From Gammaproteobacteria bacterium (GTDB lineage Bacteria > Pseudomonadota > Gammaproteobacteria > Nitrococcales > Nitrococcaceae), in NCBI GenBank assembly GCA_030433275.1, contig JAUILK010000017.1, positions 1 to 62,577 on the forward strand: a stretch of DNA of 62,577 nt, written 5' to 3'. Below are positions 10,597 to 56,438 of the stretch, piece after piece. The notes beneath the pieces are model-generated. The model worked only from the letters and a program-made list of their open reading frames with translations, did no database searches and was not told the DNA's origin. Numbering within the stretch: the stretch's first letter is position 1; each line of letters starts with the position of its first letter. The translations under genes and the position numbers were made by a program.

Positions 10597-10615
10597 CCAA
10601 TTGGGAGGTGGAGGT

Positions 10616-20633: not shown

Positions 20634-20939
20634 TCAACGGTCCACTGCGGTCGTGCGCTCGGCGGAGTAGGCTTCGAGGCGCGCGCCGTGGCGCTCCAGC
20701 GTGTCCGCGGAGAGCTCGCGGCCGCGCAACGCGGCCGGCAGTCGGACGCTGATGTGCTCGTAGCGGGCGCCCCGGGCGCAGACTGCGGCTACGAGCTGAA
20801 CCGGCAGCGTGCCCACCACTCGGTCGCCGGCTTGGATCCAGTCGGGATCGAGGTGCGGCACGATGCGCCCGTCTTGCAGACCGCGGCGCGCCAGCCACTC
20901 CACGGCGCCGGCATGGCGGGTGACGATCCACAGCGTCAC
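20634..20939 (-). CDS. csx16: Csx16 (VVA1548 family), type III accessory protein
   Basis: The 101-residue product has the Csx16 signature: LWIVTRHAGAVEWLARRGLQ at the start, HLDPDWIQAGDRVVGTLPV near 35, ARGARYEHISVRLPAALRGR near 60, ELSADTLERHGARLEAY near 80. Csx16 occurs with type III systems and has been proposed to be a ring nuclease that breaks down cyclic oligoadenylate, ending the alarm raised by Cas10; I treat that role as family knowledge, not proven here. It starts with GTG on the GTGA overlap with cas6. Confidence 0.85.
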   Translation of the reverse strand: MTLWIVTRHAGAVEWLARRGLQDGRIVPHLDPDWIQAGDRVVGTLPVQLVAAVCARGARYEHISVRLPAALRGRELSADTLERHGARLEAYSAERTTAVDR

Positions 20940-23004: not shown

Positions 23005-23010
23005 GGCGCT

Positions 23011-24195
23011 CTACTCTCCGAGGTAGCCAAGTACCGTCAAAGTGTGTTTGTACGCTTTCTTCTGCGCCGGTTTGTTGCCCTTACCGTCAGGGTTCCACTT
23101 GCCCTGCTTTTCCATGCGGTCGCGGGTGTCTTCGGCGGCGCGCCGCTTGTCCTCACCCTCGAAAGCGCCCGCTTGGAGCTGCCGGATGAGAAAAACATAG
23201 TCCGGTTGGTTTTTGTCATCACGCTGATCCAGCAGCTCCTCGATGCGCCGGAGGCAAGGATCCGTGATGCCTTCGAGTTCAGCCTTGCGGGTTGCTGCTT
23301 GCCGCTTCTCAGCGGCTTCTTGCTCGGCCTTGGCACGCGCGGTTTCGTCGACGGCCATGGCGCCGTAGCCCACGGCGGTTTTGGCGCCGAAGCCGAGCCA
23401 GTCGAAGGCGTGCCGGAAGGCGGCCTCCAGCAGCGCCTGCCAGCGCTCCGCCGCCGCCAGGGAGGCATTCAGGCGCTCGAGCAGCGGCCGGTTGCATTCC
23501 ACGTAGAAGCAAAAGCGCGTGCCCGGAGGGATGGCAAGAAACTGAATCCGGTTGGGTGAGCCCGAATCGTGCGGGCTTTGCCCACCGGTGTAGTAGTGGG
23601 TTTGGTGCGGCGTCATGATCTCCACCTGCAGCGTTTGCTTGTCCGCCAATACCGGGTAAGCGTCCCAGAAAGCGAGCGCGCCGCGCCGGGTATCCTCGCC
23701 GTTATCAGCGGGCTTGCCGAACAGCGCGTCGATGGTTGGTTTGCTCCAGCCGCCCGCGTTTGGTTCGCCGAATTCGCCTTCGGCTAGCTCTCGGGCAGAC
23801 TGTCGCACCACGCCCTTGATGCCGCTGCCCGGCAGGTAGGGCAGCCCGTAGGGCGAGAGAAAGGCGAAGCCGTTCTCCAGCGGATGCTCCATACCGAGGC
23901 CGGTGGCAAACGGCGCCGTGCTGCGCGCGGGTAGTTGCCAGAGCCCGCGGCGCGACTGGCCGAGCAGCGATTGCGCAAGCGCCGCCTGGCGTTCGGCCAG
24001 CGCGCTCATGCGCCGGCGGTCGTCGTCGGAGAGTTTGCCGGCTTGTCGCGCGGCTTTGGTTTTGGCGCTTGTGTCGATAGACCAAGGTTTCCGGGCGTCG
24101 GGCTCCCATATCGGAAAATACAGATAAAACGTGTGCCCCGGTGCGGCGTCGCGGAAATCTTGGCCTAGGTATTTGGGTACGGCGGCAATGGCCAT
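23011..24195 (-). CDS. cmr6: Cmr6, type III-B RAMP subunit
   Basis: 394 residues, longer than a typical Cmr6 (about 250-320). Core RAMP motifs are present: FATGLGMEHPLENG near residue 95, SPYGLPYLPGSGIKGVVRQS near 113, ALAFWDAYPV near 172, QTHYYTGG near 197, and the glycine-rich loop LGFGAKTAVGYGAM near 272. Beyond residue 285 comes a charged, coiled-coil-like extension (AEQEAAEKRQAATRKAEL) and a lysine-rich tail of unknown role, which explain the extra length. It abuts the cmr5 stop (TAG then ATG). Confidence 0.92.
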   Translation of the reverse strand: MAIAAVPKYLGQDFRDAAPGHTFYLYFPIWEPDARKPWSIDTSAKTKAARQAGKLSDDDRRRMSALAERQAALAQSLLGQSRRGLWQLPARSTAPFATGLGMEHPLENGFAFLSPYGLPYLPGSGIKGVVRQSARELAEGEFGEPNAGGWSKPTIDALFGKPADNGEDTRRGALAFWDAYPVLADKQTLQVEIMTPHQTHYYTGGQSPHDSGSPNRIQFLAIPPGTRFCFYVECNRPLLERLNASLAAAERWQALLEAAFRHAFDWLGFGAKTAVGYGAMAVDETARAKAEQEAAEKRQAATRKAELEGITDPCLRRIEELLDQRDDKNQPDYVFLIRQLQAGAFEGEDKRRAAEDTRDRMEKQGKWNPDGKGNKPAQKKAYKHTLTVLGYLGE

Positions 24196-24600
24196 CTACT
24201 CCTCCCGAGCCCGGCCCGAGTTCGATTGCTGCACGGCCGGGGCGATTTGACGGGTCCAACGCAGCCAGGCCAGCGCCTCGGCCGTGATCTGCTGGAACGC
24301 TGGCGGCTCGGCCTGCATCAGCGCCTGCATGAACGGCGCGAAGTTAGGGTTGCCGGTTTCCCGCGGGAACGTCTTCGGGAAACGTTCGGCGAGCCATTGC
24401 CGCAGGTGCTTGCTTAGCTCTGCATGATGTTCGCCCCCTTTTCCTTCGAGAAAAGCCAGTGTCTGCATGAGCCCGCTGTTCATGATCAGCGCCGGCAGGC
24501 CCTTGGCGAGCTTGGTGTAGGCTTCGATGTGGGCCGAGGGGCAGCCCTCGGCGCACTGCCAGGCGTCGGCGGCGCGCTGCTGCTCCAGGGTCTGGGGCAC
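24196..24600 (-). CDS. cmr5: Cmr5, type III-B small subunit
   Basis: A 134-residue helical protein matching Cmr5: QTLEQQRAADAWQC at the start, YTKLAKGLPALIMNSGLMQT near 28, LAFLEGKG near 48, and ALAWLRWTRQIAP near 108. It forms the inner filament of the Cmr complex along the crRNA-target duplex. The start is GTG at 24600, 3 nt after the cmr4 stop. The size is normal. Confidence 0.9.
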   Translation of the reverse strand: MPQTLEQQRAADAWQCAEGCPSAHIEAYTKLAKGLPALIMNSGLMQTLAFLEGKGGEHHAELSKHLRQWLAERFPKTFPRETGNPNFAPFMQALMQAEPPAFQQITAEALAWLRWTRQIAPAVQQSNSGRAREE

Positions 24601-24603
24601 GAC

Positions 24604-26691
<2,088 letters not shown>

Positions 26692-26695
<4 letters not shown>

Positions 26696-29598
26696 GTTCG
26701 GCTCCGTGTCTCTCGGGCCAGGAACTCGGCCACCGAGAGCATGTTCGCGATGAACTCGGCGGCCTTGGCTGCCGTCTCGACGGGGCACAGCCGGGCCAGC
26801 CGTTCGGCATGGATCGGCGCGCCTTCTTTCTCCAACTTCTGGCGCTGGAATTGGTAGTGCAGCATTTGCCTGAGTAGACGGCGCAACGGCGCCTCTCCAC
26901 CCACCGCTGCGGGCTCCGGCAGATCGCGCAGCCAGCTGTGGACGTTGTAGGCGGCCCGGCGCGAGGCGCCGGTGTTTTGCTGCAGCGCGCCGGAGAGAGT
27001 GCGGAGCACCCCGATCACGTCTTCGCCGTCCCTTTGCCAGGGCAGAGTGAGATCGAGCGCTCCGCCGGCGCGCTTGATGACGGTGAGCGAGAAGGCATTC
27101 CGGCTGCCGCGGTTATATGCTTTGGCTTTTTGCTCGGCTGCCCGTAGCGCGCGCAGCACCGCGCCCAATGGGGCCTGGTGATGGGCGATTACGGCGCCCA
27201 TCGAGGCAGTGGCCTGCTCGCCCATGGTCAGGTGCAGCCGTCCGTGCCGCCGCGCGAAGCCGTGCTGAAAGCGCATCCCGTGCGTCGCCTCGCTTGCTTG
27301 GCCGGAGTAGGCGAGGCGCAGGCGGCGCATGGCGGGGAGCAGGTCGCTCACGGCGAGCATGGCCATGAGGTCGTCGCCGCCGGTGTAGAGCACCCGCCCG
27401 ATGTGCTCGCGCTCGACCACCTCGCGGGCGATTACGGTGGAGAAATCGTTCAAGGCGCCGGAGATTGCCAAATGGCGACCGGGCGAGACGGCGCGGCGGG
27501 CTGCGAGGTAGTCGTTCAGTGCTGTATGGTCGCGGAAGCGGGCCTGCAATCCGGCCTGTATCTTTTGATGAAAAGCGCTGCGGTAAGGAATGGCGAAGCG
27601 GTCATCGCCGGAGAGCCAGGCGCCCATGCGATCACCGTCCATGAGCAGCAGAGCGTAATAGGTTTCGGGCTTACGGCCGAGAACGTTGCGTAATTGATTG
27701 GCTGCCGATTCGTAAGTCTTGAGTTTCGCGCCGTGTTCACGGTGCAGCCGGCTGGTCTCCTCGTCTTTGTCGCGCAGAGCATCGAGCCAGCCCGGTATAC
27801 GCTTTATGAGCTCTAGGTCTGGATGTTGGCGCAGTTTGTGGATCAAGCGCCGGGGCAAAGCCACGCGCTCGCCGCGTTCCTTGATCTCTTCGCGAAGATC
27901 GGCGTCGATGGCCAGCGGTGCCTCGCCCAGTTTGTTTAGGCTGGTGGCCAGCGCCATGGTGTGGGTCGAGACCACGAAGCGTCGGAACGACACATCGAGA
28001 ATGTCCCCGAGTTCTTCACAGAACAGTGTTGGCCAGAGACGCTTGAGCGTGGCGAGCGCTCCCAGGTGCTCACCCTTTCGCACCCAAGCAGGTCGCTTAC
28101 GGCCGAGTTGGCTCCAGAGCGTGTTTTCTGAGTCACGCCGCCCCGGCGGCAGGCCGAGATGTTCCTGCTTATCGGTGAGCCATTCCGCTTCGGCGGTGAG
28201 CGAGCAACGGTAGCCGCGCTGTTCCAGCGCCTCGAAGGCATGCGCGGATTTGGCTGCGGCCAGCACTCGCTCGACGAGGTCGTAGACCGCCGGGTACAGC
28301 ACGCCGGGATTGGGTTGGTAAAAGGTGGCCGCACCGTCGAGCGCCAGCGGCCGGCTCAGCACCCGCCAGGCGCGGCTGCCGAGAAAGCCGGGCTCTGCCG
28401 GGTCGTCCGGATAGAACGGGCGCAGCGCCTCGGCGAGCGCGTCGGTGCAGACCTTGCGGTCACCGTCGGCGGTCAGCGCGCTGTAGGGCACCGCCGCCCA
28501 GTGCACCTCGGGGAAGCCTTGCAGCTGCGCGCGGATCTGACGATAAGCCTGAAGATCAGGGCGGTCCTCGACGCCGGCCTCTTGCAGCACCCGCTGCAGT
28601 GCGGTCTCGGTGCGCTCCACGGTCCACCGGCGCAACCGCGCGGTGATGTCCTGGGCGATGGCCTCGGCCGCGCTCGCGGGTACCAGGGCCAGGAAACGGT
28701 TCGGCAGCGCGGCGCTGAAAAGTGGGTTGCCGTCGGTGGGATCATGCATCCAATTTTGTGCGCCAAAGAGGCTGCGGTCGAGCCCGCAATCACGCAACAG
28801 CCATAGATCCACCTGCGGGATGCCGCGCAGCCGCGGAAACAGGATGGCTTCCGGCCCCAGTTGCTCGCAGATCACCCGCATGGCCTCCCAGGACAAGCGT
28901 GCGAGCAGGTGCGAGCCGGCCCACAGGTCCGAGGTGGTGCGGGCCGCAGCGATGAATTCTTGCACCGGGCCGATGCTCAGGCTGAGCAGGGCGCATTCGC
29001 CTTTTTCGTCTGCCGCGAAGGCGCCGGCGAAAGCCGAGACCAGATCGAGATGATCCCAGATGCTGTGATCGGGAACGCGGGTATCGGCCGGCAGGAAACG
29101 CCACAGCTCACCAAGCCGCGCGGTATCATCCGCGGCGTCGAGTTCCGGGCCGAAACGCCAGAGTGTGAGTGCAATCCGGCGCAGGTCAGTATCGCCGGTG
29201 GCTTTCAGCAAGCGCTTGAAATGAGCCTGGCTTTGGTCTTTGACGGTCTGGATGTCAGTCTCGCGCAACCCGTCCGACTGGCGCAGGTCGAAGTCTTTTC
29301 CGGTCAGCGGGTGTATGAGCACCGGCTGTGCGGCGAAGTTGACCTGGCTCCAGCGGGCGTAGGGGCCGTTCTCGCCTTCACGGGGGAACTGCGGCCGGTC
29401 GGCGGCGGAGGCCCATCGGTCTGCTTTGCGCACCGCCGCGCAGATGTCGCTGTCGAGCCCTTGCGGGAACAGGCGCTCGTGCAGCACGCGGCTGGTGCCG
29501 CCCTCGTGGCCGGCGGGGTCACGCAGCAGCACCAGCGCCTTTTCGGCCGGATCGTGCAGCCGTGCGTGCAGTTTGGCTTGCCAGAGTCGGTCGGTCAT
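26692..29598 (-). CDS. cas10: Cas10 (Cmr2), cyclic oligoadenylate synthase subunit
   Basis: Large subunit of the Cmr complex, 968 residues. The N-terminal HD region has HARLHDPAEKALVLL near residue 10; LSIGPVQEFIAAARTTSDLW near 205 is the Cmr2 signature; the first Palm domain carries YALLLMDGDRMGAWL near 650; and the second Palm has an intact GGDD motif in LYTGGDDLMAML near 738. With GGDD intact and two CARF proteins encoded beside it, cyclic oligoadenylate signalling should be active. The start at 29598 has GAGG 8 nt upstream. Confidence 0.96.
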
Positions 29599-29613
29599 TG
29601 GGTCGGCCTCGGT

Positions 29614-30651
29614 TCAGGCGTCGACGCGCTCGAGCGCCTTGTCTTCGTCCAGTTGTTCGTGGGCGTCGGTCCAGACATCGATTAGGCGGCGTTTTTTGTC
29701 GGCTTCATCCGAGCCGGGCAATTTTTTCCACAGCGCATCCGAGGGCCGGCAGGGGAAATGGGTGAGCTCTCCGTATAGGTGCCCATTCGTATCCTTTACG
29801 ACTTTGAAGCGTAGGCTGTTAGGCAGCCGATCCTGCGCGTCCCATCCCGGCAAATCATGTTTGGTAACGGGATAGGAGAGCAAACAGCGATCCGCACTTT
29901 CTCTTGCGACCGCCGCTCGCACCCTGGCTAGCTGTTGCAGCACCTTGTCCCAGGATGCCCAAGAGCCTCGGGTGCGCCAGATCAAAGGGCCACGCTCGTC
30001 GCGTCCGATCCCGCGCACCCAGTCCGAGCACAACGTGTCGCGCCAGTAGACCAGGTAGTCGTTCCAGACGGCATCACGGGCGCCGTCGAGCACATACGAG
30101 CCCCAGCCGTTGCGGCTGCGCCCGCCCACCGTGCCGAACCGGCTCATCAACGCCAGCGCCTCCTCGATGCGGTTTGAGCCGTTCGCCGCCGCGGCTGGCC
30201 AGGCGATACGCAGCTGCGCCGTCTCGCCGGCGTCGATGGCCGGTTCGTATTTGAGCTGGAGACTCTTGCTTTGTTTGCTGTTCTCGAGCGGCCCAAAGCC
30301 CAGGTAAAGTGCGGCGTCCACCGTCTGGCGGCCGACCTGGATGGTCATTGCTCCACCGCGGCCGGAACCGTTGCTACTCCAGGTGGTTTTTTTGCCCCGC
30401 CGCCACTCGTCAAGGCGCAGCCGAATTTGGCTTTTTCTGGGCGTTTGGTCCGGCCAGGCGTTGCCGAACAACTCCGCCTCCTCGGCACGAATCCGCCGCC
30501 AATCGCGCCCCCGGGCGGCGAGCACCAGCCTCCACCACTGGCGCAGCTGCGCCTTGAACGGCGGCGTGCGCCAAGCGCCGCGCTGCTCGGCATCGCCGAG
30601 GAAGGCGGGAGTTAAAAAGCGCACGGTCAAAGTTTTGGTGTGCATTGACAT
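29614..30651 (-). CDS. cmr1: Cmr1, type III-B RAMP subunit
   Basis: The 345-residue protein opens TLTVRFLTPAFLGDAEQRGA, the standard Cmr1 start, followed by WRTPPFKAQLRQWWRLVLA near 28 and FGTVGGRSRNGWGSYVL near 172, the glycine-rich RNA-binding loop. Cmr1 and Cmr6 cap the 3' side of the crRNA. It is the first structural gene of the effector operon, 15 nt ahead of cas10. Two starts (ATG at 30651 or two codons later) are equally possible. Confidence 0.93.
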   Translation of the reverse strand: MSMHTKTLTVRFLTPAFLGDAEQRGAWRTPPFKAQLRQWWRLVLAARGRDWRRIRAEEAELFGNAWPDQTPRKSQIRLRLDEWRRGKKTTWSSNGSGRGGAMTIQVGRQTVDAALYLGFGPLENSKQSKSLQLKYEPAIDAGETAQLRIAWPAAAANGSNRIEEALALMSRFGTVGGRSRNGWGSYVLDGARDAVWNDYLVYWRDTLCSDWVRGIGRDERGPLIWRTRGSWASWDKVLQQLARVRAAVARESADRCLLSYPVTKHDLPGWDAQDRLPNSLRFKVVKDTNGHLYGELTHFPCRPSDALWKKLPGSDEADKKRRLIDVWTDAHEQLDEDKALERVDA

Positions 30652-30724
30652 GTCGTGGCCTCTTGGATCCGTTTGGCAAGGCTAACGCGTGGCCTTGGAC
30701 GGCCGCGCGGTGGCAAGCTTTCCG

Positions 30725-31885
30725 TTACGGCTCACCTTCGATATGGATCGACTGCGGCGGCAGGTCCAGCGCATAGCCGGTGTGCGGACGTCGCCCCGAG
30801 GCTTTTATGTGGTAGCGCTCAGCCGCCCGCGGTGTGAGCCCGCTGCGCTCGCTGAGTGCGCGGTTGAGTCGGCTGCGGGTGCGCTCGAAATAATTGCTGC
30901 GCTGCCCGTGCTCCAGCTCCAGGGCGGCGCTCGCAACGGCCTCATGAATCGGGGTGATGCCGTGGCCTTCCAGGTATACGATCAGGCGCAGTAGATTTTT
31001 GGCGGCGCTTTCATCAAACGGCATTGGGGGAAGATCGTGCCGCGCGCGCTCGGCGAACCAGACGAGCCAGATGAAGTGGGTGCTCGACAGCCGTACGGCA
31101 TGGCCTTGGAGATATACCTTGCGATGGGTCAGATCGAGGCGCAGCTCCGGGTGGTCGAGGCTTTGCTGCGCGCGTTCGACAGCGGTGCTGAACGGAATCT
31201 CGCCATCGAGCAGCGCCGGGTCCAGCCCATCGCGCAGACGCACGAACGGTAGTCGCGCCAGACGCACTTCGGCGGACGCCGTGCTGACGGTTTCCCCGGT
31301 TTGCGGCAGCCTCAGCCGGCGCGGCTGCGGTGGCGGATAGAAGAACTCCGGGTGCGATTCGAATGGCGCATTGACCAGTACGTGGGAGAGTTCGTCTTGC
31401 GGCCGGGCATAGAGGGAGAGTGCGTAACCGGCATAAAAGCCCATGGTCTTACGCCCACCGGCGAGTGAAACGTGCAACCGGAGTAGCGGATCGCGGGTCA
31501 GCTGCCGCAGCAGCGCATTGATGCAATCAGCCACGGCCGCGTTGCCGTCGGGGTCCGTTATGTCATCGAGCTCGCGGCCCTGCGGATCGCAGATGACATG
31601 CAGGGTCTCGGGGCCGAACCGGATTGCGTCGCGCTCGAGGCCGTAGTCTGTGCACAAGCGTTGCAACTCCCCCGGTGCGCCGTCCGAGCGGTCCAGCAAT
31701 GTGTGTTCAAGGCGGTGCCGGCCCTCTCCGGTGGTTACCACATGGATTTCCGCCGGCAGGCGGCGTTGGTCGCTGGGTGCAGCCACCGCCAGTGCGTACA
31801 AGGTCTCGGTGACGACCTGGGGCGTCAGACCGGTGATGCAGATCAGTATATCGCGCGCGTGGCTTGGCTCTTCGTTGCCTTCCAT
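30725..31885 (-). CDS. CARF protein (NE0113 family) with C-terminal winged helix
   Basis: 386 residues. The N-terminal half is a CARF domain of the NE0113 group: ILICITGLTPQVVTETLYAL near residue 14, EIHVVTTGEG near 45, LHVSLAGGRKTMGFYAGYAL near 137, with FFYPPP after it. The C-terminal half looks like an OmpR/PhoB-type winged helix: LRLDLTHRKVYLQGHAVRLS near 245, FIWLVWFAERAR, and a closing wing YHIKASGRRPHTGYAL near 360. No HEPN or nuclease motif is visible. This fits a transcription factor that senses cyclic oligoadenylate. It is the first gene of the cas operon, 73 nt before cmr1. No strong ribosome site precedes ATG 31885. Confidence 0.8.
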   Translation of the reverse strand: MEGNEEPSHARDILICITGLTPQVVTETLYALAVAAPSDQRRLPAEIHVVTTGEGRHRLEHTLLDRSDGAPGELQRLCTDYGLERDAIRFGPETLHVICDPQGRELDDITDPDGNAAVADCINALLRQLTRDPLLRLHVSLAGGRKTMGFYAGYALSLYARPQDELSHVLVNAPFESHPEFFYPPPQPRRLRLPQTGETVSTASAEVRLARLPFVRLRDGLDPALLDGEIPFSTAVERAQQSLDHPELRLDLTHRKVYLQGHAVRLSSTHFIWLVWFAERARHDLPPMPFDESAAKNLLRLIVYLEGHGITPIHEAVASAALELEHGQRSNYFERTRSRLNRALSERSGLTPRAAERYHIKASGRRPHTGYALDLPPQSIHIEGEP

Positions 31886-34877: not shown

Positions 34878-35765
34878 TCAAAACTTCCAGTTGAGTAGCA
34901 ACGTTGTTTGAACGTTTCCTGTGCGGTCTTGGCTTACACCAATATTGAAATATTCCAGTGTGGTGTTAATAGGATCGATCCACCAATAATTTTTTGGATC
35001 CAGACTCTTTTTCAAATAATAGCGTGCTTCTCCAATCATCCAGCCAACGCCGGGTGTTATTATAAGATCCTGTACGCTGGGCTGTTGAGCCCAGGACTCG
35101 AAAAAATACTCCCAGGTAACTGAGGCTCCGAAACTGAACGCGATGCTCCCAGGGACCCCGAAATGGGCTTCGCGGGCGCGCAGGTAGGTTTCAGAGCCCC
35201 AAAGCGGATGAAGCACGAGGTTGAACAGAGGGGGGTCGTCATCGAGTTGTGGCGGAGATGTAAACGCTTTAACGAAATTGTCGACCCCGGGACTGTTTTC
35301 GAGTATGCCAGCGGCAACAAAACCACCGAAGCCTATCGTCATAAAGCTCAAACTGTACAAGACTGGTTTTTTAAAAGTGATTTTAGGTGCAGGCGGCTGG
35401 GCAGTCATGTCCTCGGGCTGGCTTGGGGTATCGGTAGCCGCTGCGGGCGTGTGGCGTGGCTTGCTGTCGTGTTTTTCGTGAGTCGTGCGGCGGTTCTCCC
35501 CGAGGATCGCGCTTCCAGAGTCGAGCGTTGCACTCGATACCACGTTCCGGCGGGCGATGAAGCGCCCGATGGGCATATGTCCGGGCTCGAAAATGAGCGG
35601 GCAGGCCATCAGCGTTTTCGATACAGAAGCGGGCGCCGGCGCTGGTACGGTGTGGGTTCCCACGGAATCTCGGGGCGGCGGGGCTGCGTGTGCTGAGCTA
35701 CCTATGCTCAACACGGCGCTCAGCAGTTGACCGTGCCACCATGTGCGCTTCTTCTTGGGGCTCAT
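34878..35765 (-). CDS. DUF3943 outer-membrane-associated protein
   Basis: 295 residues with a signal peptide (WWHGQLLSAVLSIGSSAHA), a long low-complexity region rich in Pro, Ala and Thr (about 25-125), then the DUF3943 core: PLFNLVLHPLWGSETYLRAR near 185, SFGASVTWEYFFESWAQQPS near 212 and ITPGVGWMIGEARYYL near 240. The C-terminus ends in alternating hydrophobic residues with a final Phe (TTLLLNWKF), typical of outer-membrane beta barrels. Function is unknown. Its first 68 bp overlap the end of the formyltransferase frame; the signal peptide supports ATG 35765 as the real start. Confidence 0.75.
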   Translation of the reverse strand: MSPKKKRTWWHGQLLSAVLSIGSSAHAAPPPRDSVGTHTVPAPAPASVSKTLMACPLIFEPGHMPIGRFIARRNVVSSATLDSGSAILGENRRTTHEKHDSKPRHTPAAATDTPSQPEDMTAQPPAPKITFKKPVLYSLSFMTIGFGGFVAAGILENSPGVDNFVKAFTSPPQLDDDPPLFNLVLHPLWGSETYLRAREAHFGVPGSIAFSFGASVTWEYFFESWAQQPSVQDLIITPGVGWMIGEARYYLKKSLDPKNYWWIDPINTTLEYFNIGVSQDRTGNVQTTLLLNWKF

Positions 35766-36684
35766 GTTGCCAGGCTTCCTCGCTTCTCGCCATGGAGGTC
35801 TTGGTGGACAAAGGGGGGTGCACTCCAGTGGGAAAATGTCGGGCTGGTGCTGCTAAAAAAGAAAAATACCGACGGACAAACTGAGCTAAATCAGCCATGC
35901 TGTAGCCGTGCTGATGCAGGATCGAAATATCATTGCGCGATGGGTTCGAAAAATAGGAACCGATTTCTTGGGAACGTTTGAAGTTTTTCGCAGCTTCCAA
36001 ATTTTCTATAATCGATGTAAATAGATCGCATCCCAATAGGTTTATTTTCTCGTCCAAAGAGAAAAGATCGCGTTCTTGAGTTGTTATTGTTTTGGTTTGG
36101 CCTAGAATTGCGCCGGCATCGATCTGGCAATCGGTTATTTCGTGGGCAGTTACTGCAAAGCGGCGATTGTTGTTGAGAGCGCACTGGAGGATCGGATGAA
36201 GTCCTCGGCAAAGAGGTAAGGGAGCGGGGTGGAAGTTGACGACGCCTCTTTTTGGGAGGTTAATAAGAGGTTCCTGTAAAATTTGATCAAAATAATAGAT
36301 GGCAATCAATTCGATTGCTAGTGCCTTCAATCTCTCGCTGACCTCCGCAGAATTGATATCATTCACGCGAAGATGCTGAATGCCAAAATTTTTGCATAGG
36401 CTTGCAATGGATTGATAATTTGGCCGGCGGCCGAGGCGCCTTGCCAGCAAAGTCGAGCATTGGGCGAGATAACGATGAAGAATGAAATTGTAGAATAGGT
36501 AAGCGGTGAACGACAAACCCGACCGACGCAGATGCTTGAGCGACTGAGTAAGGAAGAATCGCTGGGAACCGCGGATGGGATCTGTGGTAACGACGATTTT
36601 AATCTCGTCTTTGTGTCGTTCCAAAATCGACTGGATTGTCTTGGCGGTGGAAAAGCTTTCGATGTTGAACAGCGCTATTTTCAT
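35698..36684 (-). CDS. Formyltransferase-fold protein
   Basis: 328 residues. The core is a formyltetrahydrofolate-dependent transferase: VVNFHPAPLPLCRGLHPI near residue 150 holds the Asn and His of the catalytic triad, and ITDCQIDAGAILGQT near 183 the Asp, so it should be active. The N-terminal 100 residues resemble neither methionyl-tRNA nor sugar formyltransferases closely, so the acceptor is not predictable from sequence; an amine is likely. It is the last gene of a tight five-gene operon (ATGA overlap with the acyl-CoA dehydrogenase). The last 20 or so residues run into the DUF3943 gene and look unlike the family. Confidence 0.75.
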   Translation of the reverse strand: MKIALFNIESFSTAKTIQSILERHKDEIKIVVTTDPIRGSQRFFLTQSLKHLRRSGLSFTAYLFYNFILHRYLAQCSTLLARRLGRRPNYQSIASLCKNFGIQHLRVNDINSAEVSERLKALAIELIAIYYFDQILQEPLINLPKRGVVNFHPAPLPLCRGLHPILQCALNNNRRFAVTAHEITDCQIDAGAILGQTKTITTQERDLFSLDEKINLLGCDLFTSIIENLEAAKNFKRSQEIGSYFSNPSRNDISILHQHGYSMADLAQFVRRYFSFLAAPARHFPTGVHPPLSTKTSMARSEEAWQHEPQEEAHMVARSTAERRVEHR

Positions 36685-37901
36685 AAGTCACCGCTGCTGT
36701 TTGTTTCTTGCCGAATTGGGTCTAGCGCAAAGTCGAAATCGAGGGTGCCGCTCATGGCTGCTTGTCCCAAAATTCGATCGACCCAAAGCGGGGTGGGTGG
36801 ATGGTACTGGACGGCGAGAATATCCCTTAGGCTTTGGTTTAAGGGGTTCGAGGTTAAGTAGGAAACTCCGCCGCAGAGCTCGGCCAAAGTGGTCACAATG
36901 CCTGGGAGTTCGCGGCAGCAACTTTGCTTTAGAGCGAGAGCCTGGGGTAAGGCGGTCACATTGAGGACATCATCCTTGGCGAGCAGCTGGGCGAAAAGAG
37001 ACGCTGTAGTCTCGAGATTCAGATATTTGGCATATACTTCGCCAAACCGTGTTTGTAGATGGGGAAGCTCCGAACGGGAGCGAGTGAGGCCGCTGCTCGT
37101 CGGTATCGTCGAGTGCTGCATGTGTTGGCTCGCATACTCGAGTGCGCGCCGGGCAATACCGAGATAGACGGCGCTGGCTGACAAACAGAACCACATCAGG
37201 CTGGCTTTGAAGATCCCCGAATCGTCATTACCGGCCTTGGTTTTGTGCATGACCAATCGTGTCGGCAACAAGCACCCATCCAAGACGAGCGCATCCGATT
37301 CTGAAGCGCGCATGCCCATGAATTCCGGGCCTTTTTGAACTGAAAGACCGGTAGAAGCGGTGGGGAGCAACCCGACGATCAAGGTTTCCTGGTCGATTTG
37401 AGCATGCAGGCATGCGAACTGCGCTCGACCGATCAGGCTGCAGGGCACTTTGCGGCCGGTCAGTAAATATCCATCGTCGACCTGCGCCGCTTTCGTATTG
37501 GAACGCACGAGACAGCCGCCGAGGTTAGGTTCGGCAAAGGCTGAAGCTACAATGCTGTTTTGCTGGGCGATGGCCTGCAGAAGCATCCATGATAGATCGC
37601 GTGTTCTTTTCCAATGTTCGACGATCATTCCTATAGTAAAAATATGCATTGTCGTTGCAATGGCAATGCTAGGGAAAACATAGCCGAGTTCATGCTGGAC
37701 GGAACAAACATCGGCAATGCTTGCCCCTTGACCGCCAAATTGCTTAGGAATCGCAAAAGCAAAATAATTACAATCGGTTAGAGCAGTCATGCATTCCTCT
37801 GGAATACTGGTGTGTTCTTTCTCCAAAGAACTTTCCCTAAGCTGCTCGAAGACGGCGCGAGGAAGGTAGGTTTCGCTGGCGTTCCACATACTTTTTGCCA
37901 C
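36681..37901 (-). CDS. Acyl-CoA dehydrogenase-like flavoprotein
   Basis: 406 residues with the family layout: N-terminal helices (CNYFAFAIPKQFGGQGASIA near residue 45), the FAD/substrate motif ASAFAEPNLGG near 118, GYLLTGRKVPCSLIGRAQ near 142, and a C-terminal helical bundle. The usual catalytic Glu position near 370 is not identifiable by eye; the region reads AELCGGVSYL, where active enzymes often have an Arg-Gly-Gly/Glu pattern. I placed the start at GTG 37901 because AGGAGG lies 5 nt upstream. It could desaturate an acyl chain or act on another thioester within the operon. A+T content is higher than in the rest of the window. Confidence 0.75.
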   Translation of the reverse strand: MAKSMWNASETYLPRAVFEQLRESSLEKEHTSIPEECMTALTDCNYFAFAIPKQFGGQGASIADVCSVQHELGYVFPSIAIATTMHIFTIGMIVEHWKRTRDLSWMLLQAIAQQNSIVASAFAEPNLGGCLVRSNTKAAQVDDGYLLTGRKVPCSLIGRAQFACLHAQIDQETLIVGLLPTASTGLSVQKGPEFMGMRASESDALVLDGCLLPTRLVMHKTKAGNDDSGIFKASLMWFCLSASAVYLGIARRALEYASQHMQHSTIPTSSGLTRSRSELPHLQTRFGEVYAKYLNLETTASLFAQLLAKDDVLNVTALPQALALKQSCCRELPGIVTTLAELCGGVSYLTSNPLNQSLRDILAVQYHPPTPLWVDRILGQAAMSGTLDFDFALDPIRQETNSSGDL

Positions 37902-37987
37902 GATGGCCTCCTCTTCCTCTGAAAAATAAAAGCCAATTAAATGTTGGTTTGTTATTTCAGCGAAAGCTGTAATTCGAAACAATAAAT

Positions 37988-39079
37988 TCAGAGATTAGCT
38001 TTTATTGGATTAATTGGTTTAGCTGTAAGGCTTTGTTTGTATGTCTCTGATCGCTTTTTTATAATGCGCTGATTGCACCAATATGTGAAACTACGTAGAA
38101 GTAAAGGCGTCGTGTGTTTGCTGATAAAAGCAAGCTCAGGTTTCCTGCAGGTGTGAATATTGAGGTAAGGTCGAAAACACTCCAGTGCTTGCCTCACCAT
38201 TTCGTAGTTCCGCGGTAAGTTTTTTTTCATGATAGGTAAAAAGAAACGTTCGAATACTTCAGGGTCGATGATAGTGACTTCTCCTCGGGGAGTGAGCCCT
38301 GCTTGTTGCCTCGCATTATTTACCGTGCGCTTGCCCAAAGAGATGACGGTTTCTAAGGTGGGTGCGTGGGTGCCCGAACAGGCATAAACGATCTTGCCTA
38401 AGCTGTGCGAGGGATTTTTCAAGCTCCAAGAGATGGCCTCGGTGACCGTGTCTAAAGAGACGATATCAAGATAAGCGTCGCCGTCGCCAACGAGGAAGGG
38501 GAGTAGATTCTGATTGTATAAGTAAACGAGCTGGTAAATGCTGAGGAAGCGGCTGACTGCACCGTCCGATTGTCGCCCCATCACAATACTCGGACGGATT
38601 ATGGTAAACGGGAGGCCCGAGTTCTTCACCTCTTCTTCTGCAAGGTGTTTGGAGTACTCATAAGCGTTATTGAAATCGGTTAGACTTGGAGCCCTATCCG
38701 ATTCTTTTTGTAAACCATCGACAAATGCCGTCGACACATAAATAAAATTCTGTAAGTGCGGCGCGTATCGTTTGGCGAACCCGACCAACTCTGCAGTGGC
38801 TTCTGTATTGCTCCGGAGTGCATTTTGTTCGCTTTGGTTCCAGCGTACATCAGCCGCGCAATGGATTATGACATGGGCGTTTTTAAAAACCGCTGATGGG
38901 TTCGTAATTCCAAGGTTTTCTTGCTTGATATCAATAGGAACGAACGGGAGTTTTAAACCCGCGACAGGCGGGTTGCTTCGCCCGAGTGAAAGGATAGGCC
39001 AAAGCTTTGCTACTTCGGGAACGATGGCTGAACCCACCAGTCCGCTGGCACCTGTGATAATGGCATTGCCGTAGTTCAT
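37988..39079 (-). CDS. NAD(P)-dependent reductase, thioester-reductase/extended SDR type
   Basis: 363 residues. Rossmann motif AIITGASGLVGSAIVPEV at residue 6; HCAADVRWNQSEQNA near 72; YVSTAFVDGL near 112; the catalytic YEYSKHLAEEEV near 137 with Tyr and Lys; and IRPSIVMGRQSDG near 160. This pattern is that of the male-sterility/thioester-reductase branch, which reduces acyl thioesters to aldehydes or alcohols. The C-terminal 100 residues are basic and of unknown fold. The start overlaps the SRPBCC gene's stop (ATGA). Confidence 0.78.
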   Translation of the reverse strand: MNYGNAIITGASGLVGSAIVPEVAKLWPILSLGRSNPPVAGLKLPFVPIDIKQENLGITNPSAVFKNAHVIIHCAADVRWNQSEQNALRSNTEATAELVGFAKRYAPHLQNFIYVSTAFVDGLQKESDRAPSLTDFNNAYEYSKHLAEEEVKNSGLPFTIIRPSIVMGRQSDGAVSRFLSIYQLVYLYNQNLLPFLVGDGDAYLDIVSLDTVTEAISWSLKNPSHSLGKIVYACSGTHAPTLETVISLGKRTVNNARQQAGLTPRGEVTIIDPEVFERFFLPIMKKNLPRNYEMVRQALECFRPYLNIHTCRKPELAFISKHTTPLLLRSFTYWCNQRIIKKRSETYKQSLTAKPINPIKANL

Positions 39080-39516
39080 GACACTCTCAGCTGCTTTTCG
39101 ATGTCTTCTAACATGCCATGGCAATTTTCCTTTAAAGCCTGAACGGCGATAGGAGTTAGGATATCCTCGATCGAGGGGATGCCGATGCGGAAATTCATAA
39201 GTAAGCAAACCCTCGTATACCCTGCCTCATTATAGAGCTGCCACGATCCATCCATGCTTTCGAGGTCGCCTTCTAATTGGCGAAAATCGATTCGTGCCCG
39301 GCTGGCGTCGTAATGATCTATTTCAGTCCACTCCATGACCGAATCCCGCAAGGTGGCTGACCATCTGGAAACCGTCCATTTCGGTCGATTGTCTTCGATA
39401 ATCGTTACTTCATTGACCGATGGCATAAAATTCGGATAGCATGAAATATCCGATACAATTTCCCAGACATCTTTGATATGGCGGGTGATGCTTCGATTGA
39501 CTTCAACAAGTGCCAT
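39076..39516 (-). CDS. SRPBCC (polyketide cyclase / COQ10-like) protein
   Basis: The 146-residue START-like protein: VEVNRSITRHIKDVWEIVSD at residue 4, ISCYPNFMPSVNEVTIIED near 24, and a long C-terminal helix (AVQALKENCHGMLEDIEKQL). Such proteins bind hydrophobic ligands; relatives act as aromatase/cyclases in polyketide pathways or as ubiquinone chaperones. AGAGG lies 9 nt before ATG 39516. Its place between an aminotransferase and a thioester reductase suggests it carries or cyclises a pathway intermediate. Confidence 0.75.
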   Translation of the reverse strand: MALVEVNRSITRHIKDVWEIVSDISCYPNFMPSVNEVTIIEDNRPKWTVSRWSATLRDSVMEWTEIDHYDASRARIDFRQLEGDLESMDGSWQLYNEAGYTRVCLLMNFRIGIPSIEDILTPIAVQALKENCHGMLEDIEKQLRVS

Positions 39517-39531
39517 AGATAAGCACCTCTT

Positions 39532-40776
39532 TTAGGAGTATTCCTGCAATGTCCTGCAATGATCCAGGGCTTGCTGCAAAATACCGTGCATGTAGTCCAC
39601 GTCTGAGCGCTCGAGGCAGTAAGGGGGTACAAGCCTTAACACAGTCGGGTTTGACAGGCAGGGGCTGAGAAGCAAACCTGTTTTCAGGCAGTATTCCAAA
39701 GTTCTGGCTGCATATGTATTGGAAGAAAAATGCAACCCTCTCATGAGACCAAAACCAGTATAAGCCGATAACACATCGGGGAATTGGCAGTGCAATCGGT
39801 GGAGTGCGTTTTCAATCCAGGCTCCTTTCCGCTCCACATCCGGTAAAAAATTCTTTGCCTGGACGATCTCGGTTACGGCAACTACAGCTCGGCATGCCAG
39901 AGGATTTCCACCATAGGTCGAGCTGTGGAGGTAGGGGTTGTGATCGAAGGGAGAGAAGACGGTTTCGCTTGCTATGAGCGCTGAGACCGGGACGATGCCA
40001 CCGCCGAGCGATTTGCCGACGAGGAGGATATCCGGTTTGATATCGCTGTGCTCAAAAGCCCAGAGCTTTCCGGTCCGTCCGAGCCCCGATTGGATTTCGT
40101 CAGCGACCAACAAGGTGCCGTGCTGTCGGCACAGCTGCTGGGCGGTTTTTAGAAAAGCGGGCTCGATGGGATGGATTCCGCCTTCGCCCTGAATGGCCTC
40201 CACGAACAAACCGGCGATATCCCCTGCGGCCAGCACGGTTTCGAGCTCAGTCGTGTTCCCGCGTTCAATTCTCACCACATCCTGCAACAGCGGGTGGGTA
40301 TCCGCTTTAAACCCCGCGTGGTCGGTTAGAGACAGCGCGCCGGCGGTTTTCCCGTGATAGGAGCCGCTAAGATGCGCTAGCTTTCTCTTTTCCGTCTTGA
40401 GACGGCAAAGCTTGATGGCCGCCTCCACCGCTTCGCTACCCGAGTTGAGGAGCATGGCTTTTTGCAAGTGGGCAGGAGTCAATGCCACTAAATTTTTCAA
40501 GGCCACAGCCAACTCGGCATGGCAGAGGATGCGGCTTGTGCCGGATAATCCGTGGCTCAGGAGATCCTGGAGAGCGGCCAGGAGTTTCGAATTGCCATGA
40601 CCGAACATGAAAAGGCCAAACGACCCGCAATCGAGGAAGGGTTTTCCTTTATGACCGGTAACCCACGCTCCCTCGGCCGATCGCTCGTACTGACCTGCGC
40701 CGGAAACGCCATAGATGATTGCCCACCCCTTGGAGCCGTAGGTTCTGATATCTTGCAGCAGCGACTGATAGTCCAT
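39532..40776 (-). CDS. Class III PLP aminotransferase
   Basis: 414 residues from ATG 40776 (MDYQSLLQDI). Family motifs: GSFGLFMFGHGNSKLLAAL near residue 55, MLLNSGSEAVEAAIKL near 110, the SGSYHGKT loop near 140, LLVADEIQSGLGRTGKLW near 225 with the cofactor Asp, PDILLVGKSLGGGIVPVS near 250 with the PLP Lys, and HSSTYGGNPLACRA near 290. It resembles the ornithine/acetylornithine and omega-aminotransferase group, so it probably uses an aldehyde or keto substrate with a terminal carbonyl. It is the first gene of the operon. Confidence 0.85.
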   Translation of the reverse strand: MDYQSLLQDIRTYGSKGWAIIYGVSGAGQYERSAEGAWVTGHKGKPFLDCGSFGLFMFGHGNSKLLAALQDLLSHGLSGTSRILCHAELAVALKNLVALTPAHLQKAMLLNSGSEAVEAAIKLCRLKTEKRKLAHLSGSYHGKTAGALSLTDHAGFKADTHPLLQDVVRIERGNTTELETVLAAGDIAGLFVEAIQGEGGIHPIEPAFLKTAQQLCRQHGTLLVADEIQSGLGRTGKLWAFEHSDIKPDILLVGKSLGGGIVPVSALIASETVFSPFDHNPYLHSSTYGGNPLACRAVVAVTEIVQAKNFLPDVERKGAWIENALHRLHCQFPDVLSAYTGFGLMRGLHFSSNTYAARTLEYCLKTGLLLSPCLSNPTVLRLVPPYCLERSDVDYMHGILQQALDHCRTLQEYS

Positions 40777-41125: not shown

Positions 41126-42748
41126 TTAAGAGCTGCAGGACAGCATTGAGCAGCCCGCGCGCTGACGCGCCCATTCGGGGCGTTTGGCGGCGAACCGCTC
41201 TTTGCCCGGTTGCTCGTCGTATGGGTGGCGCAAAAGCGCCTGCAACTCGTGGAGCAGCGCATAGTCGCCTTGTTCGCATTGGTCGATGGCGAGCTGGGCG
41301 AGGTAGTTGCGCAATACGTACTTGGGGTTGACCCGGTTCATGCGCCGCCGACGTGCCTCGGCATCGGCCCCGCTCTCGGCGCTTAGACGGTTGAGGTAGC
41401 GGCGCAGCCAGGCCGTGGTGCGTGCTCTGTGCTCGCCGGTCAGCGTTTCGGGCGCGTAGTAAGCGGGTAGCAGAGGCTCGAGCAGCGCTGTATCGTTCGC
41501 CCTGTGCGCCCCTTCGTCAGCGGTGTCGAGCTGGGCGAGGCCGCGGTAAAAGAGGCTCAGGTCCGTTTCGGTCAACTGCAGCACCTCCAGCAGTTCGTCG
41601 ACCAGCGGTTTGTCCCGAGCTGGATCGACCTGGCTGAGCCCGAGCTTTCCCGCCATCATGGTCAGCCAGGCCGGCTCGTATTCCTTGGCGTAGTCGGCGA
41701 TGGCCTGCTGTAGCGGTTCAACCTGACCGGCTACCGGCAAGATGGCGTTGGCGAGCTGAGTGAGATTCCACAAGGCCACCTGCGGTTGCTGACCAAAGCA
41801 GTAGCGTCGGCCGGCGGCGTCGGTGGTGTTGGGAGTCCAGTCTGGATCGTAGCCTTCCAACCAGCCATACGGACCGTAGTCGATGGTCTGGCCGAGAACG
41901 GACATATTGTCGGTATTCATCACTCCGTGCACGAAGCCGACCCGCATCCAGTGCACGACCAGCCTCAGAGTTCGCCGGCAGACTTCCTCGAACCAGGCAA
42001 TGTAGGTCTCTTGGCTCGGCTCCCCGAGGTGGGGGAAGTCCGTGCGGATGGTGTAGTCCATGAGCTGACGCAGCAGCCTCGTATTCTGGTGCGCGGCGAG
42101 AATCTCGAAGTGGCCGAAGCGCGTGAAGCTCGGTGCCACCCGACAGACGATGGCGCCCGGTTCGAAGGCGGGACGGCCATCGTAGAACATGTCGCGCATC
42201 ACTTGTTCGCCGCTCAGCGCCAGGCTCAACGCACGGGTGCTGGGGACTCCCAGATGATGCATGGCCTCGCTGCAGAGAAACTCCCGCAGCGATGAGCGCA
42301 ACACGGCAAAGCCGTCGGCCTCGCGTGAATAAGGGGTCGGACCGGCGCCTTTGAGCTGCAATATCCAGCGCTCGCCCTGCGTGTTCACGACCTCGCCTAG
42401 GTTGATCGCGCGCCCGTCGCCGAGTTGGCCGGCCCAGACGCCGAATTGATGCCCGCCGTAGCAGGTGGCATGTGGATCCATGCCCGGTAACAGGCGGTTA
42501 CCGGCGAACACCTGCGTAAACAGCTCGCTGTGGCAGTCGGCTTCGGACAGATCGAGCAGCGCGGCGACTTCACGCGAAAAGGCGATTAAACGCGGGGCGG
42601 CCACTGGTCGCGGCGGTACCCGCGAGAAGCAGGCACCCGTTACCAGGCGGCGCTGGTTATGGCTGTGTGGATCGGCCGGTAGCTCGCGGGTGAAGCGGTT
42701 GTCGAAGACGAGCTGTTCCAGGGTCGGGGCTTGCAGTTGAGTATTCAT
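41126..42748 (-). CDS. selO: Protein adenylyltransferase SelO
   Basis: A pseudokinase-fold enzyme that transfers AMP to protein hydroxyls. 540 residues with the YdiU/SelO motifs: HATCYGGHQFGVWAGQLGDG near residue 97, QLKGAGPTPYSREADGFAVL near 130, VHGVMNTDNMSVLGQTIDYG near 245, and NRVNPKYVLRNYLAQ near 480. The C-terminus GCSMLSCSS contains the conserved final cysteines that replace selenocysteine in bacterial homologues. I chose ATG 42748 (MNTQLQAP); four codons upstream is an alternative. It stands alone. Confidence 0.93.
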   Translation of the reverse strand: MNTQLQAPTLEQLVFDNRFTRELPADPHSHNQRRLVTGACFSRVPPRPVAAPRLIAFSREVAALLDLSEADCHSELFTQVFAGNRLLPGMDPHATCYGGHQFGVWAGQLGDGRAINLGEVVNTQGERWILQLKGAGPTPYSREADGFAVLRSSLREFLCSEAMHHLGVPSTRALSLALSGEQVMRDMFYDGRPAFEPGAIVCRVAPSFTRFGHFEILAAHQNTRLLRQLMDYTIRTDFPHLGEPSQETYIAWFEEVCRRTLRLVVHWMRVGFVHGVMNTDNMSVLGQTIDYGPYGWLEGYDPDWTPNTTDAAGRRYCFGQQPQVALWNLTQLANAILPVAGQVEPLQQAIADYAKEYEPAWLTMMAGKLGLSQVDPARDKPLVDELLEVLQLTETDLSLFYRGLAQLDTADEGAHRANDTALLEPLLPAYYAPETLTGEHRARTTAWLRRYLNRLSAESGADAEARRRRMNRVNPKYVLRNYLAQLAIDQCEQGDYALLHELQALLRHPYDEQPGKERFAAKRPEWARQRAGCSMLSCSS

Positions 42749-42772
42749 GACAGGCCGCATTGATTGTGAATG

Positions 42773-56334: not shown

Positions 56335-56438
56335 GACCGGAAGGTACGGAGGCTGCCGGTTGCATTGCCGCCGGCAGTCTTTCGGCCTCGATGAATGAAG
56401 TTTGCCGAAACACGGCACAGTCGAACGGGAGCAGGATC

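What the first reader, a model, noticed from the sequence alone, without database searches (positions are those of the whole stretch)
35698..40776. Five-gene biosynthetic operon of unknown product in A+T-richer DNA
Aminotransferase, SRPBCC protein, thioester-reductase-like protein, acyl-CoA dehydrogenase and formyltransferase are tightly packed. A simple reading is: a thioester-bound acyl chain is desaturated, reduced to an aldehyde, transaminated to an amine and N-formylated. No carrier protein, ligase or synthase is present, so the acyl substrate would come from primary metabolism. Base composition and lack of a link to neighbours suggest acquisition by transfer.
Basis: partly seen in the sequence, partly recalled or inferred. 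Interest (0 to 1): 0.66.

Follow-up and report, generated by a model that had tools for sequence, protein, structure and literature searches.

The report
Putative fatty N-hydroxyformamide biosynthesis operon
A five-gene operon in a relative of the marine bacterium Nitrococcus mobilis most likely turns a fatty acid into a fatty amine, oxidises its nitrogen and caps it with a formyl group, reusing the front half of the pathway that other bacteria use to make cytotoxic azoxy compounds, so it may make a new kind of metal-binding lipid.

Summary
The five genes are real, tightly packed, and in the same order in Nitrococcus mobilis. They occur in 3 of 5 genomes of the genus (dN/dS 0.02-0.16) and are G+C-poor in all three.

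The first four (class III aminotransferase, SRPBCC, thioester reductase, ACAD-fold flavoprotein) form a widespread module, all four found in 64 of 84 related loci. In Streptomyces it sits beside VlmA-like and flavin-reductase genes and matches the published azodyrecin (aliphatic azoxy) set, where the flavoprotein is assigned as an amine N-hydroxylase.

The window's "acyl-CoA dehydrogenase" has Pro and Phe at the two known catalytic-glutamate positions, and its family profile's best solved relatives are KijD3 and flavin monooxygenases. A desaturase is therefore unlikely.

The formyltransferase belongs to a rare clade that takes the place of the azoxy-forming enzymes: 0 of 9 loci with it and the flavoprotein carry VlmA.

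Best reading: acyl thioester, aldehyde, amine, N-alkylhydroxylamine, N-hydroxy-N-alkylformamide. N-hydroxylation and product are inferred. Against it: the window's flavoprotein lies on a branch without a flavin reductase, and this genome has no PF01613 protein. One clade member (G1862) lacks the flavoprotein.

The parts
39532..40776 (-). AT: class III PLP aminotransferase (414 aa); inferred to turn a fatty aldehyde into a fatty amine
   Evidence: PF00202 1.3e-81; best NCBIfam matches include putrescine aminotransferase and prodigiosin PigE, below cut-off; 42% to the Leptospira and 35% to the Nostoc cluster aminotransferase
39076..39516 (-). SRPBCC (polyketide-cyclase-like) protein, 146 aa; inferred lipid-binding helper, function unknown
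   Evidence: PF03364 4e-15; found in 76 of 84 related loci; in G401 this ORF has an in-frame stop
37988..39079 (-). TR: NAD_binding_4 / thioester-reductase-like SDR, 363 aa; inferred to reduce acyl thioester to aldehyde
   Evidence: PF07993 1e-32; GxxGxxG, STA and YxxxK residues invariant in five relatives; starts on the SRPBCC stop codon
36681..37901 (-). ACAD-fold flavoprotein, 406 aa from the conserved GTG; inferred flavin-dependent amine N-hydroxylase
   Evidence: Pfam ACAD domains; HPP motif in 76 of 76 clustered family members (75 matched HPP[TSA], one HPPN); Pro and Phe at the two known catalytic-Glu columns; profile best PDB hits 3m9v/4kcf (KijD3), 5z8t/5gj7, DszC; AF2 model pLDDT 88.6
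35698..36684 (-). FMT: folate-type formyltransferase, 328 aa, with a helical insert at residues 41-83 and no Formyl_trans_C match; inferred to N-formylate the hydroxylamine or amine
   Evidence: PF00551 1.7e-12; N150, H152 and D189 invariant in the 9-member alignment; fold matches ArnA/Fmt, best Z 18.5, rmsd 2.9 A over 203 residues; 328 aa in three species
34878..35765 (-). DUF3943 ORF overlapping the FMT 3' end by 68 nt; flanking gene, not assigned to the pathway
   Evidence: PF13084 2.6e-26; conserved next to FMT in N. mobilis and G401
41126..42760 (-). SelO, upstream boundary gene, not part of the pathway
   Evidence: PF02696 1.1e-123; also present in G400, where the operon was not found

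Best explanation
A self-contained pathway to a formylated N-oxidised fatty amine. (1) TR reduces an acyl thioester from primary fatty-acid metabolism to an aldehyde. (2) AT converts it to a primary fatty amine. (3) The ACAD-fold flavoprotein, using reduced flavin and O2, hydroxylates the nitrogen. (4) FMT transfers formyl from 10-formyl-tetrahydrofolate to the nitrogen, giving an N-hydroxy-N-alkylformamide (a lipophilic reverse hydroxamate). SRPBCC probably shields or delivers the hydrophobic intermediate. Shown by sequence: gene families, intact folate-formyltransferase residues, loss of both dehydrogenase bases, shared module with azoxy clusters. Inferred: every reaction, chain length, order of steps 3 and 4, and the final product.
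For: Core module shared with Streptomyces clusters: of 84 loci, 64 have all four core genes, 49 a VlmA-like, 48 a VlmO-like, 42 a flavin reductase, 14 a VlmB-like gene. Pfam on representatives: LPG_synthase_C, Flavin_Reduct, LCM methyltransferase PF04072, a weak DUF4260 match for VlmO-like, none for VlmB-like, which is the gene set described for azodyrecin. PMC9379638 (whole text) proposes dehydrogenase to aldehyde, PLP transaminase to amine, VlmH/VlmR-like pair to hydroxylamine. Catalytic Glu columns hold Pro and Phe, while two ordinary ACADs of the same genome each keep one of the bases. Family profile against PDB: KijD3 1.2e-28, 5z8t/5gj7, DszC, DnmZ ninth; butyryl-CoA dehydrogenase 4.4e-22. 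FMT clade: 0 of 6 loci with VlmA against 49 of the other 78 (Fisher p 0.004; loci not independent); 3 further loci, L139, L192, L193, have none either, so 0 of 9 (one of them, L076, is a 4.7-kb contig). 3 of 3 actinobacterial FMT-clade loci have core plus flavin reductase (L106, L192, L193). G1000 was found by FMT alone and has the full core. FMT loci fall in four separate places of the ACAD tree. N-hydroxylation then folate formylation is known for coelichelin/rhodochelin (passage in PMC7347517).
Against: The window's flavoprotein is on a deep separate branch (7 of 68 family rows), and no locus of that branch shows a flavin reductase or VlmA. The whole genome has no PF01613 flavin reductase (13 of 14 control genomes do), so another electron donor is required. 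29 of 84 loci have neither VlmA nor this FMT, for example L060, sister of the Nonomuraea FMT loci, so the swap is not a strict either-or. Loss of both Glu columns is not unique to this family: two other ACAD-fold proteins of the order (L145, L146) lack them too. Structural comparison does not separate monooxygenases from dehydrogenases (Z 39.6-42.1), and Foldseek ranks mix both. In G1862 a close FMT relative (45%) sits with a class III aminotransferase fusion, a P450 and an MMPL transporter but no detectable ACAD, TR or SRPBCC within 19.5 kb, so FMT may act on a plain amine. The FMT insert is only moderately hydrophobic (mean Kyte-Doolittle 0.45 over 56-83) and a similar stretch occurs in weak relatives without the core. 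No VlmH or Ady3 sequence was compared. No product has been measured.
Confidence: 0.52

Rival explanations
1. The product is a plain N-alkylformamide (or a later oxidation product of it): FMT formylates the amine directly and the flavoprotein oxidises elsewhere, for example next to nitrogen (imine, enamide, nitrile) or not at all.
For: G1862 has aminotransferase and FMT without a detectable ACAD-fold gene; no PF01613 flavin reductase in the genome; the window branch of the flavoprotein is divergent.
Against: Three actinobacterial FMT clusters keep ACAD plus flavin reductase; all five genes are under constraint in Nitrococcus; HPP signature shared with the branch that holds the VlmA clusters.
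Confidence: 0.24
2. One reading: the ACAD-fold protein desaturates the thioester-bound acyl chain, then reduction, transamination and formylation give an unsaturated formamide.
For: ACAD fold and Pfam domains; tambjamine-like logic is known (recalled, not looked up); some related clusters have a separate fatty-acid desaturase, so an unsaturated chain is plausible chemistry here.
Against: Neither known catalytic-base column is acidic; family profile closest to KijD3 and other flavin monooxygenases; the azodyrecin paper assigns the VlmH-like protein to N-hydroxylation and unsaturation to a separate desaturase (PMC9379638).
Confidence: 0.1
3. The operon makes an azoxy or other N-N compound, with the missing steps encoded elsewhere in the genome.
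For: Shared four-gene module with azoxy clusters.
Against: No PF09924 (VlmA) match in the genome (7 of 14 control genomes have the family); no VlmO- or VlmB-like stretch in the window; this FMT clade and VlmA not found together in 9 loci.
Confidence: 0.04
4. FMT acts on a sugar nucleotide or another unrelated amine, and the operon is two unrelated units side by side.
For: Fold neighbours include ArnA and WbkC sugar formyltransferases.
Against: 4-nt ATGA overlap with the ACAD gene; same linkage in four places of the ACAD tree including cyanobacteria and Nonomuraea; no sugar gene among the four flanking genes scanned.
Confidence: 0.05

Closest known systems
Azodyrecin (ady) aliphatic azoxy gene cluster, Streptomyces
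   Same: Dehydrogenase/reductase to aldehyde, PLP transaminase and VlmH-like flavoprotein; Streptomyces loci here (L080, L082, L104, L114, L119) carry the core plus VlmA-, VlmO-, VlmB-like, flavin reductase, desaturase and PF04072 methyltransferase genes
   Different: Window lacks VlmA-, VlmO-, VlmB-like, flavin reductase, desaturase and methyltransferase genes of these kinds; has a formyltransferase instead; flavoprotein on a separate deep branch
Valanimycin VlmH/VlmR isobutylamine N-hydroxylase
   Same: Two-component flavin monooxygenase acting on a primary amine (literature: PMC7347517 passages, PMC9379638); inferred reaction. That VlmH has the ACAD fold is recalled
   Different: No PF01613 flavin reductase in this genome; VlmH itself not compared here
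Folate-dependent formyltransferases of hydroxamate siderophores (coelichelin, rhodochelin)
   Same: N-hydroxylation followed by formyl-THF formylation (PMC7347517 passage)
   Different: Inferred substrate is a fatty hydroxylamine; the enzyme has a helical insert (residues 41-83); no such siderophore enzyme was compared here
Polyketide-alkaloid thioester reductase plus transaminase pairs (coelimycin, argimycin P; chemistry recalled)
   Same: Reductive release to aldehyde and transamination
   Different: No polyketide synthase found in the window by the searches made; the reductase is a free-standing SDR (PMC5300972 seen only as a search listing)

Membership tests
Aliphatic azoxy (azodyrecin/valanimycin-type) clusters | VlmA-like LPG_synthase_C tRNA-dependent transferase | tested here: not met
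   0 matches of PF09924 in the genome and none in the window
Aliphatic azoxy (azodyrecin/valanimycin-type) clusters | VlmO and VlmB homologues | tested here: not met
   tblastn with family representatives over the whole 62.6-kb window: none; rest of genome not searched; the representatives are named by gene content and a weak DUF4260 match
Aliphatic azoxy (azodyrecin/valanimycin-type) clusters | VlmH-like flavoprotein | tested here: inconclusive
   Groups with the family found in VlmA clusters and apart from 4 other ACAD-fold proteins (100/99), but on its own deep branch; no VlmH sequence available
Aliphatic azoxy (azodyrecin/valanimycin-type) clusters | VlmR-like flavin reductase | tested here: not met
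   0 PF01613 matches in the genome
Fatty-amine front module (TR, AT, SRPBCC, ACAD-fold) | All four genes clustered | tested here: met
   Window and N. mobilis; G401 has all four, its SRPBCC ORF with an in-frame stop
Acyl-CoA dehydrogenases (desaturating) | Catalytic Glu at the MCAD-type or IVD-type position | tested here: not met
   Pro and Phe in the two aligned columns; residue roles recalled
Acyl-CoA dehydrogenases (desaturating) | ACAD fold | tested here: met
   AF2 model pLDDT 88.6; Z 39.6-42.1 to dehydrogenases and monooxygenases alike
Folate-dependent formyltransferases (PF00551) | Asn-x-His ... Asp catalytic residues and Rossmann-like fold | tested here: met
   N150, H152 and D189 invariant in 9 sequences; Z 18.5 to ArnA and 18.1 to E. 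coli Fmt; residue roles recalled
Methionyl-tRNA formyltransferase | C-terminal Formyl_trans_C domain and equivalog score | tested here: not met
   Only PF00551 above its cut-off; 60.7 bits against a cut-off of 201.5 for TIGR00460

The most novel reading that the evidence does not exclude
The operon makes a new natural-product class, long-chain N-hydroxy-N-alkylformamides (lipid reverse hydroxamates), by swapping the azoxy-forming half of a known pathway for a dedicated formyltransferase. The same pairing is seen in Nitrococcus, Nostocales-type cyanobacteria, Nonomuraea and G1191, a further actinobacterium; in cyanobacteria the module also sits with a nitric oxide synthase, which could supply NO for N-nitroso-hydroxylamine lipids.
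Probability: 0.42. Interest if true: 0.76.

Novelty: new variant of a known kind. Interest (0 to 1): 0.6.

Why it matters
If true, a congener of a marine nitrite oxidiser (lifestyle of N. mobilis recalled) makes a lipophilic hydroxamate, a group that binds iron and other metals. The pathway would link azoxy biosynthesis to hydroxamate biosynthesis through one exchanged enzyme. It would also give a searchable signature (core genes plus this formyltransferase clade, no VlmA) for an unseen compound class, and point to a group of likely N-hydroxylases annotated as acyl-CoA dehydrogenases.

Tried and rejected
Sugar-type or tRNA formylation was considered and put low because the formyltransferase is tied to the fatty-amine genes in several lineages and scores far below the curated models shown. 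Azoxy product put low for lack of VlmA, VlmO and VlmB. Acyl-CoA desaturation lowered, not excluded. Structure comparison of the ACAD-fold model did not discriminate between dehydrogenases and monooxygenases. A viral-contig scan with the reductase gave no relative. Plasmid search with the reductase gave 18 records, all under 60% identity, including the Leptospira and Nostoc clusters. An attempt to find a true VlmH by looking for valanimycin-like clusters around 19 of the ACAD matches in 131 genomes of one genus gave more core clusters but none that I could identify as valanimycin, so no direct VlmH comparison was made. Weak profile hits of the formyltransferase (5 of 396 actinobacterial genomes, E 1e-22 to 1e-30; 7 of the 9 hits among 266 gammaproteobacterial genomes) look like a wider formyltransferase family: of these 12 loci I fetched 6, and none shows AT, SRPBCC or ACAD; 3 of the 6 lie on contigs under 7 kb, L232 has a weak SDR hit and L230 a ketosynthase hit. 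Five of these six, aligned, have an insert like that of the window protein, so I withdrew the idea that the insert marks a lipid-specific enzyme. L055 was counted as FMT-positive but is an ordinary Fmt (23%, aligned only from residue 85) and was dropped, leaving 6. The dN/dS value for SRPBCC against G401 is invalid because that ORF has an in-frame stop. Literature: the listings of searches showed no paper on this operon or on fatty N-hydroxyformamides from such a cluster (65 listed only 25 of 7,250, 33 listed 17 of 18, 72 listed 20 of 21); one search (VlmH with formyltransferase) returned 0 papers; only open-licence papers are held.
Full report
Observation. The five genes exist as described on the - strand between 35698 and 40776: AT 39532-40776, SRPBCC 39076-39516, TR 37988-39079, ACAD-fold 36681-37901, FMT 35698-36684. 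TR starts on the SRPBCC stop and FMT on the ACAD stop (ATGA), AT and SRPBCC are 15 nt apart, and 86 nt separate TR and ACAD, so the genes are probably co-transcribed (inference). Pfam supports each assignment; none of the NCBIfam families shown reaches its cut-off.

Where it lives. The ACAD-fold protein is 89% identical to one in Nitrococcus mobilis Nb-231 (L043). There the five genes are in the same order with the same neighbours. Of 5 genomes of the genus, 3 carry the gene (own, G398, G401) and in G399 and G400 only distant ACADs were found. In G400, SelO is followed by other genes; a DUF3943 relative lies on another contig. G399 gave no match to either flank. dN/dS between species is 0.02-0.16 for the five genes, like the flanking SelO (0.13-0.17); the G401 SRPBCC value is excluded because that ORF carries an in-frame stop. 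G+C is about 0.51 in all three species against 0.62 around. So the operon looks foreign but is maintained.

The core is a module. Recruiting by the reductase found the Leptospira interrogans plasmid p3 and Nostoc plasmid pC052_E clusters. Recruiting about 85,000 genomes by the ACAD-fold protein gave 206 relatives, 80 kept. Across 84 loci (window, 3 plasmid loci, 80 genome loci) tblastn found ACAD in 83, AT in 80, SRPBCC in 76, TR in 67 within about 10 kb, and all four in 64; several contigs end early. Control: of 29 other loci recruited by SDR similarity in 398 genomes, only L002 also had the aminotransferase (flanks 1.5 kb), and 8 wider ones (about 9 kb, L032-L039) had neither AT, SRPBCC nor ACAD.

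What the module does elsewhere. 49 of the 84 loci carry an LPG_synthase_C gene (VlmA-like), 48 a VlmO-like gene, 42 a flavin reductase, 14 a VlmB-like gene. Representatives: LPG_synthase_C and Flavin_Reduct are clear; VlmO-like matches DUF4260 weakly (0.0017, below cut-off), as the azodyrecin authors report for Ady6; the methyltransferase is PF04072, as they give for Ady1-like proteins; VlmB-like has no Pfam match and is named by gene content. In the azodyrecin paper (PMC9379638, whole text read) Ady2 makes the aldehyde, Ady4 the amine and Ady3/Ady10, similar to VlmH/VlmR, the hydroxylamine; desaturation is given to a separate enzyme, Ady9. These are proposals by those authors except for Ady1, which they assayed. 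I equate the ACAD-fold gene of these loci with Ady3 because it is the only such gene that I found there; I did not have the Ady3 or VlmH sequence.

The flavoprotein. In an alignment with other acyl-CoA dehydrogenases, the window protein and 14 other family members shown have Pro in the column of the EGT-type glutamate and Phe in the column of the alternative base. L142 (this genome), L147 and L148 keep the first, L143 (this genome) the second, while L145 and L146 from the order keep neither. The HPP motif is present in 76 of 76 clustered family members. A 41-sequence profile finds KijD3 first in the PDB (1.2e-28), then 5z8t/5gj7, DszC, 5lnx (an acyl-CoA dehydrogenase), and the nitrososynthase DnmZ ninth; butyryl-CoA dehydrogenase follows at 4.4e-22. 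That KijD3 is an N-oxygenase is recalled. Foldseek's first hit is a flavin-containing monooxygenase, but dehydrogenases are mixed in, and structural Z-scores do not separate the two. A tree of 72 rows separates 68 family members from four other ACAD-fold proteins; the window sits with two congeners, Leptospira, Nocardiopsis, Rhizocola and Microbispora (7 rows, 95/92) apart from the 61-row branch that holds every VlmA cluster in the tree. Long branches and composition warnings apply.

The formyltransferase. It keeps the N-x-H and D residues (N150, H152, D189) in all nine aligned clade members, folds like ArnA and Fmt, shows no C-terminal-domain match, and has a helical insert at 41-83 absent from the ordinary Fmt proteins aligned. 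The insert is only moderately hydrophobic, and similar stretches occur in weak relatives without the core, so it proves no lipid substrate. Clade members: window, N. mobilis, G401, three cyanobacteria (L056, L071, L076), L106 and L192 (Nonomuraea and a genome of its family), L193 (G1191) and L229 (G1862). The first nine have no VlmA; L076 is a 4.7-kb contig with only ACAD and FMT in view. L106, L192 and L193 have core plus flavin reductase plus FMT. The clade is rare: 1 of 386 cyanobacterial genomes (the seed itself); 2 of 341 in the family of L106, of which G1000 is new and has the full core; one more, L193, among 19 loci fetched after an ACAD search of 131 genomes; and among 266 genomes of the window's class only the window and G1862 match strongly. 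G1862 is the counter-example: aminotransferase fusion (894 aa), P450 and MMPL, but no core flavoprotein, reductase or SRPBCC within 19.5 kb. 29 of the 84 loci have neither VlmA nor this FMT.

Mechanism. Together the data favour acyl thioester, aldehyde, amine, hydroxylamine, N-hydroxy-N-alkylformamide. The amine stage and formylation are well supported as inference; the N-hydroxylation is likely but weaker because the window branch shows no flavin reductase gene and the genome has no PF01613 protein. Formylation of hydroxylamines by folate enzymes is described for siderophores (passage of PMC7347517).

Novelty. The front module is known in azoxy clusters. Its coupling to a dedicated formyltransferase in place of VlmA was not seen in the listings of the searches made (open-licence papers only, 65 capped). 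I class it as a new variant of a known kind.

Noticed in passing
L041 (Nostoc plasmid pC052_E) 7965-16627; L056, L064, L071: Cyanobacterial versions carry a nitric oxide synthase oxygenase, a GNAT/FemAB-like transferase, a fatty-acid desaturase (not found in L071) and, in L056 and L071, the formyltransferase; an NO-dependent N-modification is conceivable.
   Followed up: partly
L083 (Streptomyces cavernae): Core plus flavin reductase plus a nitric oxide synthase homologue, no VlmA found.
   Followed up: no
L068, L081, L102, L110, L122: Streptomyces variants with core, GNAT, P450, ketosynthase and acyl carrier protein, no VlmA found.
   Followed up: no
L040 (Leptospira interrogans plasmid p3) 1-10119: A core cluster of the window's branch sits with HisG, an AIR-synthase-related protein, GT8, a GMC oxidoreductase and three unknown proteins; two of these (Hyp2, Hyp3) have relatives in some actinobacterial loci of that branch.
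   Followed up: no
L229 (G1862) 8721-16592: Formyltransferase relative (45%) next to a P450, an 894-aa protein with an N-terminal class III aminotransferase and about 490 residues without a Pfam match, and an MMPL transporter.
   Followed up: partly
L139 (G401) 4025-4465: In-frame stop in an otherwise 95% identical SRPBCC gene of a congener; sequencing error or decay.
   Followed up: no
window 20634-31885: Type III-B CRISPR effector genes (Cas10/Cmr2, Cmr1, Cmr3, Cmr4, Cmr6) with Cas6, Csx16 and two CARF proteins (Csx1-type) about 4 kb from the operon.
   Followed up: no
window 56391-58019: PNPOx-like split barrel fused to a DmmA-like/ferredoxin reductase module; a possible source of reduced flavin, pure speculation.
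   Followed up: no
L212 (G422): A related flavoprotein with HPI instead of HPP (41% to a family representative) near a class III aminotransferase and a desaturase-like gene, in a genome of the same taxonomic order.
   Followed up: no
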